The notes under the pieces are model-generated. The model saw nothing but the letters and a program-made list of their open reading frames with translations. It had not been told where the DNA came from and searched no databases. DNA of 64,000 nucleotides from Phycisphaerales bacterium (GTDB lineage Bacteria; Planctomycetota; Phycisphaerae; Phycisphaerales; SM1A02): positions 1 to 64,000 of the forward strand of contig JAKVBX010000017.1 of the NCBI GenBank assembly GCA_022446795.1, given 5' to 3'. Position 1 is the first letter of the stretch, and each line of letters opens with the position of its first letter. Both the position numbers and the translations under genes were made by a program. Shown in pieces: positions 47,602 through 52,512 of the stretch.

Positions 47602-48507
47602 CTACGGCACCAGGACCCAGTCCCGTTTCCAGGCACCGTTGGCCCAACGTCGCATGTCTGCCAGTTGCGATGGCCGCTCCAGGGCCGTGCTGCCGTCGAC
47701 CATCGCGGTGACCGCCTTGCCATTGTGGCGGGCCGAGACGAAACCGTGGTCCGCGGGGTCATCGGTCATCAGGTCTACTGGTGAGCCTTCCGGCGTGGCT
47801 GCCCACTGGAACCCACTGGTGGGGTGGCAGGGGCTCTGGATGCGATGGAAACCTTCGACGATTCCGCCGAGCCAGCTACCGCCGCCGCCTTGCATGCTCC
47901 CGAAGCGGGCGGAGGCGAAGATCATCAACTGTGACGGCTTCTTGATGTCCGAGAGCCGCTGTGCCCAGGGACATTCCTTCAGGTCGCCATACTCGTACAG
48001 GGCATAGAGGTTGTTGGAGACGTCTTCTCCGAGGCCTCCAACCCATTCGCCGTTGAGTCCATAGGCCGGGTGAAGCGTCGTTGCATATTGGTGGTCCGGA
48101 ACGTCGACGATCTCACGCCGAACGGTATCCAGCGCCGTGGGGAAGAAGACCTCCTTGGCATTCTCCACGTAGGCAGCGAGCCGCCAGAACCAACGCTTGC
48201 GAGGCTCTCCCCCCAGGATGAAATCGCCGTTGAAGTCATACAGGGGCTCGGCTTCCGGGTCGGAATCGGGGTAATACCCCATGAGCAGTTCACCATCGCG
48301 GTCAGTGGCATAGTCCCGCCACGCGGCGGCGGTGGCCCGGGCTCCCGAGAGTTCGTCGACCGCTCGGCCCTGGGCTTCGATGCTCCCCAGCACCGGGATG
48401 GCCAAGGCAACAATGAGGCCCAGGATGGCAATGACCACCATCAGCTCGATGAGGCTGAAACCTCGCCTGGAGGCCAGGAAGACGGGTTGGAGGTGGATTC
48501 GGGACAT
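47602..48507 (-). CDS. Type II secretion/pilus pseudopilin with H-X9-DG motif
   Basis: The 301-residue protein has a prepilin leader (RRG at residues 14-16) followed by FSLIELMVVIAILGLIVALAIPVLG. A prepilin peptidase would cut at G-F and methylate the new N-terminus. The C-terminus has the planctomycete H-X9-DG element: the H of RHNGKAVTAMVDGST is followed nine residues later by DG. The rest (about 60-270) is a large globular domain with YPDSDPEAEPLYDFNGDF. No other pilus or secretion gene is near, so it probably feeds into machinery encoded elsewhere. It is divergent from the dockerin/PEP-CTERM module. Confidence 0.88.
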   Translation of the reverse strand: MSRIHLQPVFLASRRGFSLIELMVVIAILGLIVALAIPVLGSIEAQGRAVDELSGARATAAAWRDYATDRDGELLMGYYPDSDPEAEPLYDFNGDFILGGEPRKRWFWRLAAYVENAKEVFFPTALDTVRREIVDVPDHQYATTLHPAYGLNGEWVGGLGEDVSNNLYALYEYGDLKECPWAQRLSDIKKPSQLMIFASARFGSMQGGGGSWLGGIVEGFHRIQSPCHPTSGFQWAATPEGSPVDLMTDDPADHGFVSARHNGKAVTAMVDGSTALERPSQLADMRRWANGAWKRDWVLVP

Positions 48508-48623
48508 CAGGAGCAGGTCAGTTTGGTGATGGTAAGCAGGATTTCGTTGAAACTCAATCGCAATTGGCCCTGTATACGGGGTATCTCAGTATCCTTCCAG
48601 TCTTGGTCTCTAGGGGAGTTGGC

Positions 48624-49640
48624 ATGAGTTTGCTCGGTCATTTCGTGTTCCTGGCCGTGGTTACCGCGCAGGCGGTGGCTGGGGGAACCTATGTAAGTGT
48701 CTACTCCCAACCCGACTATGACCGCTGGAACTATCCGTACAACGGGACACCGGGTACTCGGCCGGTGGCATCCACGTTTTCGGCGTACGGCTCGGAGTAT
48801 GACTTTGACGATCGCGACGGCCAGGCACTGCTTGGTTACGTGACGGCGGATATTCCGCAGGGGCTTCCGGCGTCCGCGTACCGGGTCGTGTCGCTGAGCG
48901 TCGACATTGCCCTCGCCAGCGATGACATCGTCTATGACCCGACAGTTGATGACCGTGCGACCCATGAGGCTGATGGGCCGGCAGATCCGGATCCTGGTCG
49001 TGCCGTGTGCCTGTCGGGAGTGGGCTTTCGAGGCGGCTACGATCCCACGACCTACGGGGAGACGGCACCGCATCCCTTTGGTGCCACTCGCGGCATACGC
49101 TACGCGTATGCCCTGGGCTACTCGGCCACTGGTGAGCCCCTCGACATTTCCAACAACCTCACCGATGGATTCGACCCCACGTTCTTTGGCGTTGGGCAGG
49201 TTGATGGCATTCAGCCAGGCGAGTTGATCCCCGAGTTGGGTCGCGTCCGGTTTGACGTGAATGTGGACGACCCTGACATTGCCTGCTACCTCGCGGAGTC
49301 ACTGGCGTTTGGAACGGTTGACTTCATGATCACGTCGCTGCATCCGGCTGCTGAGCCTGGATCAGGTGGGGAAGTCAACTATCCCAACTGGATGATGAAG
49401 GATCACTCGCTGGTCGAGGTCGGCGTCGTCGAGGCGGCCCGGATGTGGATTGAAGTGGAAGTCATCGAGCCGTCCGGTGTCCCGGCCGATGCCACTGGTG
49501 ACGGTGCGGTCAACGTGGACGATCTGCTGGCGGTACTGGGGGATTACGGGGTCTGCCCGTGTTGTCCGACGGATTTCGACGGCAGCGGGACCGTAGATGT
49601 GGATGAAGTTCTGTTTGTCATTGGCAACTGGACGGGCTGA
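48624..49640 (+). CDS. Secreted dockerin-tailed protein (module copy 1, first gene)
   Basis: The 338-residue protein starts at the ATG at 48624, six bases after AGGGGAG, with a signal peptide (MSLLGHFVFLAVVTAQAVAGG). The body (about 22-280) has no family I know: SVYSQPDYDRWNYPYNGTPG, DIPQGLPASAYRVVSLSVDI, PHPFGATRG and DVNVDDPDIACYLAESLAFG are the blocks shared with its paralogue at 50673-51677. The C-terminal region has GVPADATGDGAVNVDDLLAVLGDYG, a CPCCPTD cysteine cluster and a second calcium loop FDGSGTVDVDEVLF. A PEP-CTERM-like gene follows 89 bases later. Confidence 0.82.
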   Translation: MSLLGHFVFLAVVTAQAVAGGTYVSVYSQPDYDRWNYPYNGTPGTRPVASTFSAYGSEYDFDDRDGQALLGYVTADIPQGLPASAYRVVSLSVDIALASDDIVYDPTVDDRATHEADGPADPDPGRAVCLSGVGFRGGYDPTTYGETAPHPFGATRGIRYAYALGYSATGEPLDISNNLTDGFDPTFFGVGQVDGIQPGELIPELGRVRFDVNVDDPDIACYLAESLAFGTVDFMITSLHPAAEPGSGGEVNYPNWMMKDHSLVEVGVVEAARMWIEVEVIEPSGVPADATGDGAVNVDDLLAVLGDYGVCPCCPTDFDGSGTVDVDEVLFVIGNWTG

Positions 49641-49729
49641 GAGTGGTTGAGATCTGATCACCTCGGACCCGACTTACTTTGAGATACCGGTTCCCTTGGG
49701 GGGTGGTCCGGGAGAAGGAGATGTGAGAG

Positions 49730-50401
49730 ATGAATTGTGCAAAATGCGTTCTTGGTACGTTCGCAGCAGCCATGCTCAGCAGCACGGCGATGGCGGGCTT
49801 CGTGGTGGAGGACATTCCCGCGTGGCGTGGTGCTGCCGATACGGCCTACTACAACTGGGAGACCTTCACGAGTGCCGACAGCACTCAGCCGAACTTTCCC
49901 AATAACGAGGCGTTTCCGAGTGGTTCTGCCTTGTTGTTCAACTTTGGATCCGACGCCATCATTACCGGCGCCGGCAATATCTATGGTTACGGTGGCGCCT
50001 TGAACATCCATACCTACGGGTACGCGGATTCCGACATCCAGGAGGCGGTCTTCAACTTCGCCACGATGGGTACCGAGATCAACTACGACGGCGCGATGAT
50101 CGCCTGGACTGGCGCCAATGGCGAGCAGGGACTCATCAGCAACCTGACGGAGTCGATCAACTACTACGAGGAAGTCGACTTTGGCCAGGGGCCCGGCTCC
50201 ATCGTCAATGTCAGCTGGAGCATCGATCTCTCCAGTGTCGATGCCGATGTCCGTGAGATCGGCATGATCTGGCAATCGGATACCGTGAACATCAGTCTCA
50301 ATACCGTTTCCATGGATCTGCGATTCGGAGATATTCCAGCACCTGGTGCCCTGGCACTGTTGGGTATCGCCGGCTTGGCTGGACGTCGTCGGCGACGCTG
50401 A
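49730..50401 (+). CDS. PEP-CTERM-like surface protein (module copy 1, second gene)
   Basis: The 223-residue protein starts at the ATG at 49730, nine bases after AAGGAG. A signal peptide (ending STAMAG) leads to GFVVEDIPAWRG, shared with the paralogue at 51763-52416, then an all-beta body with IITGAGNIYGYGGALNIHTYGY. It ends IPAPGALALLGIAGLAG followed by RRRRR, a PEP-CTERM-like sorting tail. In such systems an exosortase cuts the tail and the protein is exported to the surface or matrix. It is probably co-transcribed with the dockerin gene before it and is followed by a strong terminator. Confidence 0.83.
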   Translation: MNCAKCVLGTFAAAMLSSTAMAGFVVEDIPAWRGAADTAYYNWETFTSADSTQPNFPNNEAFPSGSALLFNFGSDAIITGAGNIYGYGGALNIHTYGYADSDIQEAVFNFATMGTEINYDGAMIAWTGANGEQGLISNLTESINYYEEVDFGQGPGSIVNVSWSIDLSSVDADVREIGMIWQSDTVNISLNTVSMDLRFGDIPAPGALALLGIAGLAGRRRRR

Positions 50402-50450
50402 GCCTGACCGAGACCGACGACCGCGTCGGTCAATCCATGCCATTGCTTCA

Positions 50451-50486
50451 CCGCCGCGAGGACTCGTCCTCGCGGCGGTTTCATTT
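50451..50486 (+). terminator. Intrinsic terminator after module copy 1
   Basis: CCGCCGCGAGGAC (50451-50463) pairs perfectly with 50466-50478 around a TC loop, giving a 13-bp stem followed by TTTCATTT. It lies 50 bases after the PEP-CTERM-like gene. Confidence 0.85.
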
Positions 50487-50584
50487 GGCCTGCTCGGATG
50501 CCCGCCAGGCGTCGTCCCGGGCGGAACCAGGGGCCATCGTCCGGCCTGAACCCAGTCCCATGGCCGGTCTCCTCCAGCAGATTC

Positions 50585-50603
50585 ATTGAGAATCTCTCTC
50601 AAT
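50585..50603. promoter_or_regulatory. Upstream 19-bp palindrome (possible operator)
   Basis: ATTGAGAATCTCTCTCAAT pairs at seven of nine positions. It shares TTGAGAAT and TCTCAA half-sites with the palindrome 15 bases downstream at 50619-50641. Confidence 0.5.
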
Positions 50604-50618
50604 ATCCCCAAAAGCGCG

Positions 50619-50647
50619 TTGAGAATGAGTCGCAATCTCAATAGGAT
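50619..50647 (+). promoter_or_regulatory. Promoter overlapped by a 23-bp palindrome (operator) of module copy 2
   Basis: TTGAGA (50619-50624), 17 bases, TAGGAT (50642-50647) make a plausible promoter 26 bases before the ATG at 50673. The 23-bp palindrome 50619-50641 (TTGAGA...TCTCAA, nine of eleven pairs) fills the -35 and spacer. This layout would let a bound dimer block RNA polymerase. The TGAGAAT half-site resembles Fur-family operators, which is only a suggestion. The 19-base motif GTTGA-N7-TCGCAAT that contains it (50618-50636) recurs at 48546-48564 before copy 1. Confidence 0.5.
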
Positions 50648-50672
50648 GCGGAGCTCTGGAGGAGCCCTGCTC

Positions 50673-51677
50673 ATGCGTTTGTCCCTGCTATTGGGAATCC
50701 TGGCGACCACCGCGGTGTCGAGTACGGCCTCGGCCGAGATCTACTCAGCCGTCTATGGGCAGCCGGATTTTGACCGCTGGATGTACCCCTACAACGCGAC
50801 GCCGGGGGATCGCATCGTGGGGCCCACGTTCACGGGGTACCTCTCCGGGGATATCGAAGATCGATACGGGCAGACGATGCTGGGCTGGGTCACCATTGAC
50901 ATTCCGCCGGATCTGCCGCCGTCGTCCTATCGCGTGGTGTCCATGTCCGTGGATGTCACCATCGCCAATGCGGACGTCTACCTGGACAACACGGCTGATG
51001 ATCGGGCGAGCCATGAGCCCGGCGGCATCGACGAGGACCCCGGGCGGCCATTTCACCTTTCCGGAGCAGGGTTCCGGAATGACTATGACGCGAACAGCTT
51101 CGGCGAGGACGGTCCGCATCCGTTTGGCGCCGGGCTTGGTGGTCGCAATGCCTATGCGCTGGGATTCGACGAGGACGGAAATCCCATCGACATTTCGAAC
51201 AACCTGACGGAGCAGTTTGATCCGAAGCTCTTTGCCATCGGCGACAGTGATGACGCCGAGCCTGGCGAGTTCCTGCCCGAGTTGTCAACGGTCAACTTCG
51301 TTGTCGACGTCGATGATCCCGACATCGCGTGCTACCTGGCACAAGGTCTTTCGTTCGGCACCCTGGACGTGATGCTGAGCTCGTTCCATTCCGGCAGCCA
51401 GGATGGGAGTGGCTCGTATCCGAACTGGATGTTGAAGGAGCATTCGCTCGTTGATATCGGCGTGGCCTCGGCCGCAACGTTGACCCTTGAGGTCGAGGTC
51501 ATCGAGCCATCAGGTGTTCCCGCGGATGCCACCGGTGACGGTGCGGTGAACGTGGATGATCTGCTGGCAGTGCTTGGAGACTACGGTCGCTGTCCCTGCT
51601 GCCCGACGGATTTCGATGAGAGCGGGACCGTGGACGTCGATGAAGTGTTGTTTGTTATCGCCAATTGGACAGGCTGA
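50673..51677 (+). CDS. Secreted dockerin-tailed protein (module copy 2, first gene)
   Basis: The 334-residue protein starts at the ATG at 50673, eight bases after GGAGGAG, with a signal peptide (MRLSLLLGILATTAVSSTASAE). It is a close paralogue of the product of 48624-49640. It has SAVYGQPDFDRWMYPYNATPG, DIPPDLPPSSYRVVSMSVDV, PHPFGAGLGGRNAYALGF and DVDDPDIACYLAQGLSFG. The dockerin pair and CPCCPTD cluster are also conserved. The function is unknown. The predicted promoter and operator lie just upstream. Confidence 0.82.
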   Translation: MRLSLLLGILATTAVSSTASAEIYSAVYGQPDFDRWMYPYNATPGDRIVGPTFTGYLSGDIEDRYGQTMLGWVTIDIPPDLPPSSYRVVSMSVDVTIANADVYLDNTADDRASHEPGGIDEDPGRPFHLSGAGFRNDYDANSFGEDGPHPFGAGLGGRNAYALGFDEDGNPIDISNNLTEQFDPKLFAIGDSDDAEPGEFLPELSTVNFVVDVDDPDIACYLAQGLSFGTLDVMLSSFHSGSQDGSGSYPNWMLKEHSLVDIGVASAATLTLEVEVIEPSGVPADATGDGAVNVDDLLAVLGDYGRCPCCPTDFDESGTVDVDEVLFVIANWTG

Positions 51678-51762
51678 GGATCATTGATGCCCAATGATGC
51701 TGGGCCTGTGTGTTTTTAGAGACCGGTCCTTCGGGGAGGTTCCGGGAGAAGGAGAGATGTCA

Positions 51763-52416
51763 ATGAAATCTGTATCGGTACTTGTCGGCGGCTTCCTGGT
51801 CGCCTTTACAGCCTCGGTTGCGACCGCAGGCTTCGTGGTGGAGGACGCCCCTGAATGGCGGGGCGACGCCAATACCATGTATGGAAGTTGGGAGTCCTTC
51901 ACGTCCCCCAACTATGCGCCCAACTTTGCCCAGGGTGGCAATATCGGTGCCTTCGGTACGATCCACAACATGTCTGGAACGGGCATTATCACTGGCAGTG
52001 GGAACATCTACGATCCCGCCGGCGCCCTCAAGATGCATCACTACGTGCAGAATGCCACCAATGACATCACGGATGCCGTCTTCAACGTGGCCACCATGGG
52101 CACGGGACTGGACTGGAATTCCCTGATGTTCACCTGGTCGGGTGCTGATGGCTCTTCCGGCATGTTGGATGCCTCGGACTACAGCATCAACTTCGAGAAC
52201 GAGATTCCGGGATTCGGCACCACCTACAACATCAGCTGGTCGTTCGACCTGTCTGCCATCGATGCCGTGGTCACGGACGTGGCGTTCATCTTCAACGCTA
52301 TTGGGCCGCACATGAGTTACGACGCCGGGACCATGGATATCCGCATGGTTCCAGCACCTGGTGCCCTGGCACTGCTGGGCCTGGCTGGCCTGGCTGGCCG
52401 TCGGCGTCGTCGCTGA
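51763..52416 (+). CDS. PEP-CTERM-like surface protein (module copy 2, second gene)
   Basis: The 217-residue protein starts at the ATG at 51763, eight bases after AAGGAG; an ATG at 51757 is too close to that site. The signal peptide ends VATAG, and GFVVEDAPEWRG follows as in the paralogue. The body has GSGNIYDPAGALKMHHYVQNA and SWSFDLSAIDAVVTDVAFIF. The tail is VPAPGALALLGLAGLAG and five arginines. A clear terminator follows. It would be exported and anchored, and may act with the dockerin-tailed protein made from the same message. Confidence 0.83.
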   Translation: MKSVSVLVGGFLVAFTASVATAGFVVEDAPEWRGDANTMYGSWESFTSPNYAPNFAQGGNIGAFGTIHNMSGTGIITGSGNIYDPAGALKMHHYVQNATNDITDAVFNVATMGTGLDWNSLMFTWSGADGSSGMLDASDYSINFENEIPGFGTTYNISWSFDLSAIDAVVTDVAFIFNAIGPHMSYDAGTMDIRMVPAPGALALLGLAGLAGRRRRR

Positions 52417-52467: not shown

Positions 52468-52512
52468 CAGCGTCGCGAGGATCAATCTTGACCTCGCGGC
52501 GCTGTCTTTTTT
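52468..52512 (+). terminator. Intrinsic terminator after module copy 2
   Basis: A 13-bp stem (52468-52480 with 52492-52504, one G-T pair) and an 11-base loop are followed by TCTTTTTT. It lies about 50 bases after the stop, at the same relative place as the terminator after copy 1. Confidence 0.88.

What the first reader, a model, noticed from the sequence alone, without database searches (positions are those of the whole stretch)
48624..52416. Tandem duplication of a two-gene module: dockerin-tailed protein plus PEP-CTERM-like protein
The pair 48624-49640/49730-50401 recurs as 50673-51677/51763-52416 with the same order, similar gaps (89 and 85 bases) and a terminator at the same distance after each. 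The two proteins carry different anchoring signals (dockerin loops versus sorting tail) but are made from one message, which suggests they work as partners at the surface. Their bodies match no family I know.
Basis: partly seen in the sequence, partly recalled or inferred. Interest (0 to 1): 0.7.

Follow-up and report, generated by a model that had tools for sequence, protein, structure and literature searches.

The report
Iron-regulated pilin-linked surface protein cluster
Two copies of a secreted-protein gene pair in a marine planctomycete sit behind Fur-type iron-response DNA boxes and next to a pilin gene, which suggests a surface system made when iron is scarce in a bacterium where no TonB-type iron receptor was found.

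Summary
In detail: A1-B1-A2-B2, same order, gaps of 89 and 85 b, a strong terminator about 50 b after each pair. (1) The constant partner of the dockerin protein (A) is not B but a prepilin gene just upstream (47602-48507, minus), which adjoins A in 47 of 51 related loci. B adjoins A in about ten loci and lies elsewhere in ten other genomes. (2) The cluster is very probably Fur-controlled. A 17-bp Fur-type palindrome occurs four times in the 3.5-Mb genome: before A1, before A2, before a heme-type ABC operon with fused heme oxygenase, and before a cytochrome-complex operon. In relatives it also precedes fur, imelysin and PepSY genes, and 24 of 34 A promoters. Stand-alone B genes can sit beside heme oxygenase or an IsdE-like operon. 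(3) A is predicted as a CBM96/DNRLRE-like sandwich plus dockerin; B as a generic jelly roll. (4) It is not one clean pair duplication: A1/A2 split within the genus, B1/B2 earlier. Best reading: an iron-starvation surface module, prepilin plus A as core, B a frequent accessory, probably for iron or heme capture where no TonB receptor barrel was found. Ligand and A-B contact are untested.

The parts
47602..48507 (-). Prepilin-like protein (type IV pilin / pseudopilin N-terminus, large unassigned C-terminal body), head to head with A1; the conserved partner of A
   Evidence: PF07963 N_methyl E 2e-7, TIGR02532 E 6.5e-8 over cut-off; adjacent to A in 28/31 and 19/20 loci
48547..48563 (.). Fur-type 7-1-7 box TTGAAACTCAATCGCAA in the prepilin-A1 intergenic region
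   Evidence: one of four <=1-mismatch sites in the 3.54-Mb genome; same position in relatives
48624..49640 (+). A1: secreted CBM96/DNRLRE-like beta-sandwich plus C-terminal dockerin
   Evidence: pLDDT 91.5; 8wab Z 13.1; 7vbo Z 12.4
49467..49637 (+). dockerin-like domain of A1
   Evidence: 2y3n_B Z 9.1, 1.8 A over 56 residues; PF00404 in 14/34 relatives
49730..50401 (+). B1: secreted jelly-roll-like protein with PEP-CTERM-like tail
   Evidence: (pLDDT 90)
50336..50398 (+). PEP-CTERM/MYXO-CTERM-like tail of B1 (PAPGALALLGIAGLAGRRRRR)
   Evidence: TIGR02595 13.6 bits against cut-off 16; PF07589 16.7 against 20.7
50450..50479 (+). terminator after B1
   Evidence: z -5.2
50585..50603 (.). second Fur-type palindrome upstream of A2 (ATTGAGAATCTCTCTCAAT)
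50619..50635 (.). Fur-type box upstream of A2 (TTGAGAATGAGTCGCAA), overlapping a sigma-70-like -35 (TTGAGA-17-TAGGAT)
50673..51677 (+). A2: paralogue of A1, same architecture
   Evidence: 58% body identity to A1; own orthologues in G001, G003, G004
51763..52416 (+). B2: paralogue of B1, same architecture
   Evidence: 45% body identity to B1; B2 lineage shared with G012
52468..52504 (+). terminator after B2
   Evidence: (z -5.2), followed by a T-rich run

Best explanation
The locus is a Fur-controlled (iron-starvation) cell-surface module. Its ancient core is a prepilin gene and gene A, a secreted acidic CBM96-like beta-sandwich carrying a dockerin, expressed from a shared, usually divergent promoter region that carries a Fur-type 7-1-7 box. 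B, a jelly-roll protein with a PEP-CTERM-like tail, belongs to the same iron/heme regulon and in this lineage has been placed behind A on the same transcript; the A-B unit is present twice. Likely working: when iron is short, Fur releases the promoters. The prepilin is assembled into a pilus or pseudopilus, A is exported and held at the surface through its dockerin, and B is anchored by its sorting tail. Together they capture an iron source (heme, hemoprotein or iron-laden polymer) that is passed to the IsdE-like ABC importer and heme oxygenase encoded elsewhere in the same regulon. Shown by computation: gene order, boxes, regulon members, prepilin linkage, predicted folds. Inferred: that Fur binds the boxes, that the pilin and A work together physically, and that iron or heme is the ligand.
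For: Box at only four places in 3.54 Mb with zero in the reversed control: A1, A2, an IsdE-like/FecCD/FecE-heme-oxygenase operon, an ACIII/TatD operon. In relatives the same box precedes fur itself, imelysin with an iron-type binding protein, PepSY_TM, and the IsdE-like operon. 24 of 34 A promoters carry it within 2 mismatches. Prepilin next to A in 47/51 loci, including distant families. Heme oxygenase next to A (L080, L086, L087, L089) and to B (L092, L097); IsdE-like SBP, FecCD and FecE behind B in G007. Stand-alone B genes carry their own box in G007, G011 and others. B found only with A in family f1. Three Fur-family proteins and no TonB-receptor barrel hit in this genome. T2SSE/T2SSF genes near the prepilin-A unit in some genera.
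Against: No expression or binding data. The box pattern was first drawn from A promoters, so the A count is partly circular (the iron-gene, fur and reversed-control results are not). 10 of 34 A promoters, and most A genes of distant families (f8, f19, f22), lack the box. A and B have no conserved His/Cys/Met heme-ligand signature; a Tyr is invariant in A. No cohesin hit for the dockerin. Completeness is 96%, so absences are provisional. A pilus role rests on gene order alone. The L217 iron-type binding protein is called so from context: its best NCBIfam match is a phosphonate-type SBP below cut-off.
Confidence: 0.6

Rival explanations
1. Iron-responsive adhesin: under iron starvation the cell makes a pilin and the CBM96-like A protein to attach to algal polysaccharide or particles; B is a coat protein. 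Iron is the cue, not the ligand.
For: A's best structural neighbours bind chondroitin sulfate and alginate (PMC9971899). Planctomycete pili-like fibres bind dextran (PMC5394234). Prepilin linkage. Distant families keep prepilin-A without the box.
Against: A bodies are very acidic (pI about 4.05), unlike the lysine-rich groove described for CBM96; heme oxygenase and IsdE-like genes are repeated neighbours.
Confidence: 0.25
2. One reading: A and B are obligate surface partners in one complex, and the module arose by one tandem duplication of the pair.
For: Probably one transcript, same order twice, adjacency in about ten loci including a separately placed second pair in G012.
Against: A usually lacks B and B is apart from A in ten genomes. 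The gene trees conflict: window-genus B proteins as one clade rejected (AU 1e-70), A following the B history rejected (AU 5e-4 and 7e-6).
Confidence: 0.1
3. The box belongs to another Fur-family regulator (zinc, manganese or peroxide) and the module answers to that signal.
For: Three Fur-family proteins in the genome; the box departs from E. coli GATAATGATAATCATTATC by G/C at symmetric places.
Against: Box targets are heme-type ABC, heme oxygenase, imelysin, PepSY and cytochrome genes, an iron/heme set.
Confidence: 0.1
4. Ordinary structural surface proteins of planctomycetes with no iron role; neighbours by chance.
For: Dockerin-tailed and PEP-CTERM-tailed proteins are plentiful in this genome.
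Against: Box rarity and placement, conserved prepilin linkage across the class, repeated heme-gene linkage.
Confidence: 0.05

Closest known systems
Isd heme-acquisition system of Gram-positive bacteria (sortase-anchored NEAT proteins, IsdE/IsdF importer, heme oxygenase)
   Same: Fur-type control; surface-sorted beta-sandwich proteins; IsdE-like SBP, FecCD-type permease, ABC ATPase and heme oxygenase in the same regulon
   Different: No NEAT domain hit in A or B; Gram-negative envelope; PEP-CTERM-like tail and dockerin instead of sortase motif; prepilin partner; heme binding not shown; the IsdE matches are below the equivalog cut-off
CBM96 / DNRLRE domain (alginate-binding TM6-N4, PDB 7VBO; PMC9971899)
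   Same: beta-sandwich of the A body, Z 12.4, 3.3 A over 166 residues
   Different: no sequence-family hit, large insertions, acidic body (pI 4.05)
Type I dockerin of cellulosomes and the proposed planctomycete 'planctosome' (PMC6461901)
   Same: C-terminal double EF-loop domain, structural match to 2y3n
   Different: no Pfam cohesin hit in this genome; non-enzymatic body; iron control
Pili-like fibres of planctomycete crateriform structures (PMC5394234)
   Same: prepilin gene coupled to a secreted binding-type protein
   Different: link is only a hypothesis; the passages read assign no genes to those fibres, and the species studied are other planctomycetes
PEP-CTERM/exosortase surface proteins
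   Same: B tail PAPGALALLGxAGLAGRRRRR
   Different: scores just below the family cut-offs; exosortase not tested here

Membership tests
Fur regulon (Fur-box-controlled iron genes) | 7-1-7 inverted repeat resembling the Fur box in the promoter | tested here: met
   consensus gcaATTGAGACT[C/G]AGTCTCAATtgc in 24/34 A promoters; canonical sequence from PMC7762939; departs from it at symmetric positions
Fur regulon (Fur-box-controlled iron genes) | same box upstream of fur and known iron genes | tested here: met
   fur, imelysin, PepSY, IsdE-like/FecCD/heme oxygenase
Fur regulon (Fur-box-controlled iron genes) | iron-dependent expression or Fur binding | not testable with these tools
   needs culture or EMSA
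CBM96 / DNRLRE domain (A body) | sequence-profile match | tested here: not met
   no Pfam or NCBIfam body hit at E<=1 for A1/A2, none in 34 relatives in Pfam at E<=0.01
CBM96 / DNRLRE domain (A body) | fold | tested here: met
   7vbo Z 12.4, 3.3 A over 166; 8wab Z 13.1, 4.4 A over 171
CBM96 / DNRLRE domain (A body) | basic alginate-binding groove | tested here: inconclusive
   41 D/E against 13 K/R, pI 4.05; residues not superposed
Type I dockerin (A tail) | Pfam Dockerin_1 profile | tested here: inconclusive
   absent for A1/A2, present in 14/34 family members
Type I dockerin (A tail) | dockerin fold | tested here: met
   2y3n_B Z 9.1, 1.8 A, 56 residues
Type I dockerin (A tail) | cognate cohesin in the genome | tested here: not met
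   no PF00963 hit in 3.54 Mb at 96% completeness; a diverged cohesin could be missed
PEP-CTERM (B tail) | profile over the curated cut-off | tested here: not met
   TIGR02595 13.6/15.1 against 16; PF07589 16.7/16.6 against 20.7
PEP-CTERM (B tail) | exosortase in the genome | not tested
NEAT hemophore (Isd) | NEAT domain sequence | tested here: not met
   no NEAT hit at E<=1 in Pfam or NCBIfam for A1, A2, B1, B2
NEAT hemophore (Isd) | heme binding | not testable with these tools
   needs purified protein
Type IV prepilin-like protein (47602-48507) | prepilin N-terminal cleavage/methylation motif | tested here: met
   PF07963 30.6 bits against 21.2; TIGR02532 32.1 against 16.3
Single tandem duplication of the A-B pair | A and B paralogue trees show the same split | tested here: not met
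   groups were named after the trees were seen, and gene conversion could explain it

The most novel reading that the evidence does not exclude
A Gram-negative iron/heme capture route without TonB-dependent receptors: a Fur-induced pilus or pseudopilus with a dockerin-tailed CBM96-like capture protein, plus a sorting-tail-anchored jelly-roll protein, feeds an Isd-like importer with heme oxygenase across the planctomycete periplasm.
Probability: 0.25. Interest if true: 0.85.

Novelty: new variant of a known kind. Interest (0 to 1): 0.6.

Why it matters
How planctomycetes bring large molecules and iron across their outer membrane is open: pili-like fibres bind polymers, and the uptake system is described as still to be characterised (PMC5394234). 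This locus gives named, testable genes (a prepilin, a capture-type protein, an anchored accessory) under a recognisable iron switch, in a genome where no TonB receptor barrel was found. It also yields a usable Fur-box consensus for Phycisphaerae and links two uncharacterised protein families to iron/heme metabolism.

Tried and rejected
Upstream scans of loci whose match was on the minus strand were first done on the wrong strand and redone; the first deep B alignment had wrong-strand rows and was replaced. The genome-contig search with the A3 alignment failed for lack of a conserved stretch; with A1 alone it named two relatives. Foldseek/VIA for B gave only background-level jelly-roll matches (best Z 8.3, many tied), so no family is claimed for B. 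I considered that B might be the missing cohesin for A's dockerin: no cohesin profile hit for B, no cohesin among its listed structural matches, and A keeps its dockerin where B is absent, so I do not favour it, but a complex prediction was not possible. Paper searches for the exact box sequence and for planctomycete Fur regulons found nothing relevant. A conserved element in the A-B gap was looked for and not seen.
Full report
OBSERVATION. The four genes are as described: A1 48624-49640, B1 49730-50401, A2 50673-51677, B2 51763-52416; gaps 89 and 85 b; strong terminators at 50450-50479 and 52468-52504. A bodies are 58% and B bodies 45% identical, so the repetition is real, and old.

WHO IS PAIRED WITH WHOM. 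I searched A and B in 60 relatives and in 298 genomes of the class. A occurs in 60 of 298 class genomes, in most members of two families and in several distant ones; B in 19. In the window's family B occurs only where A does (20 of 35 A+ genomes, 0 of 12 A-; Fisher p 3e-4, not corrected for phylogeny or completeness). B adjoins A in the window, four others of its genus (G001, G002, G003, G005; in G004 contig ends hide the link), G009, G012 (twice), G027 and G180. In G006, G007, G011, G018, G022, G030, G198, G265, G268 and G286 B lies elsewhere. In G322, of another family, the order is B-prepilin-A, an apparently independent joining. A's constant neighbour is a prepilin gene: 28 of 31 loci among relatives and 19 of 20 further loci, most of them from other families, mostly head to head, in distant families A followed by prepilin. 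In the window this is 47602-48507 minus (PF07963, TIGR02532). In three genera T2SSE/T2SSF-type genes stand near it.

THE SWITCH. Reading the prepilin-A intergenic regions side by side showed a recurring palindrome; its symmetrised consensus is gcaATTGAGACT[C/G]AGTCTCAATtgc, a 7-1-7 repeat like the Fur box (canonical GATAATGATAATCATTATC, PMC7762939). The 17-b core within one mismatch occurs four times in the 3.54-Mb genome and its reversed control never: upstream of A1, upstream of A2, at the start of an operon with an IsdE-like binding protein, FecCD permease and an ABC ATPase fused to heme oxygenase, and between an alternative-complex-III subunit and TatD plus a BtuF-like gene (these last names are my reading of the sequences). 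In relatives the box also lies before fur itself, an imelysin with a solute-binding protein, a PepSY_TM gene and the IsdE-like operon. The core occurs in 57 of 61 relatives, with few reversed-control hits. 18 of 34 A promoters have it within one and 24 within two mismatches. The pattern was drawn from A promoters, so that count is partly circular; the iron-gene, fur and control results are not. Box 50619-50635 overlaps a -35-like hexamer, as a repressor site would, though the scan finds no more such hexamers than shuffles do. In A-B pairs there is no box between A and B; some stand-alone B genes have their own. Stand-alone B is followed by IsdE-like/FecCD/FecE genes in G007 and adjoins heme oxygenase in G011 and G018; A adjoins heme oxygenase in four genomes. 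So both families are tied to iron/heme by two kinds of evidence, promoter boxes and neighbours.

THE PROTEINS. A (model pLDDT 91.5) is a beta-sandwich closest to a chondroitin-sulfate-binding module (8wab, Z 13.1) and the alginate-binding CBM96 domain (7vbo, Z 12.4), then a dockerin (2y3n, 1.8 A over 56 residues). No sequence family covers the body. Bodies are very acidic, pI 4.05-4.5, unlike the lysine-rich alginate groove described for CBM96 (PMC9971899). B (pLDDT 90) is a jelly roll with only background-level matches and a near-cut-off PEP-CTERM tail. The genome shows no cohesin and no TonB-receptor barrel, and three Fur-family proteins; it is 96% complete.

HISTORY. A1 and A2 split inside the window's genus, each with orthologues in some species; G001 keeps only a remnant of A1, and G004 has A1 and A2 without B1 between them. 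B1 and B2 split earlier: B1 groups with G009 and G180, B2 with G012. Forcing B of the genus together, or A onto the B history, is rejected (AU 1e-70; 5e-4 and 7e-6), with the caution that the groups were named after seeing the trees. G012 shows the reverse mix: its B copies are 92% and its A copies 56% identical. Old duplication with loss and gene conversion fits; one recent pair duplication does not.

MECHANISM. Most likely an iron-starvation surface module: prepilin plus A as core, B as accessory, feeding the IsdE-like importer and heme oxygenase. My estimates: Fur control likely (about 0.9), prepilin-A functional coupling probable (about 0.8), iron or heme capture plausible (about 0.5). Planctomycete fibres that bind polymers (PMC5394234) make a pilus-borne capture protein reasonable, but this is inference. 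The main rival is an iron-cued adhesin.

NAMED RELATIVES. The nearest named genomes are Phycisphaerales MAGs (cluster2_bin.81 and UBA3158).

Noticed in passing
L103:4652-6220 (G000 C18): ABC ATPase fused to heme oxygenase in one 522-aa protein, in a Fur-box operon with an IsdE-like binding protein; in G003 the two are separate genes.
   Followed up: partly
L108:8934-8950 (G000 C1:516933): Fur-type box between the first gene of an alternative-complex-III-like operon (cytochrome subunit) and tatD/btuF-like genes, kept in G001, G003 and G004.
   Followed up: partly
window:52532-53656 (-): Protein-kinase-like gene with a C-terminal membrane anchor, conserved directly downstream of the module in many near relatives; weak kinase score (PF00069 24.9 bits against 31.7), may be a pseudokinase.
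   Followed up: no
L065:6797-7291 (G001): Truncated remnant of an A1-type gene still preceded by a Fur-like box.
   Followed up: partly
L066:4499-6287 (G012): A second A-B pair away from the prepilin, with its own perfect Fur-type box; its B is 92% identical to the other B although the A copies are 56% identical.
   Followed up: partly
window:51689-51712: Small hairpin followed by a T-rich stretch in the A2-B2 gap, possibly an attenuator; not seen in the A1-B1 gap.
   Followed up: no
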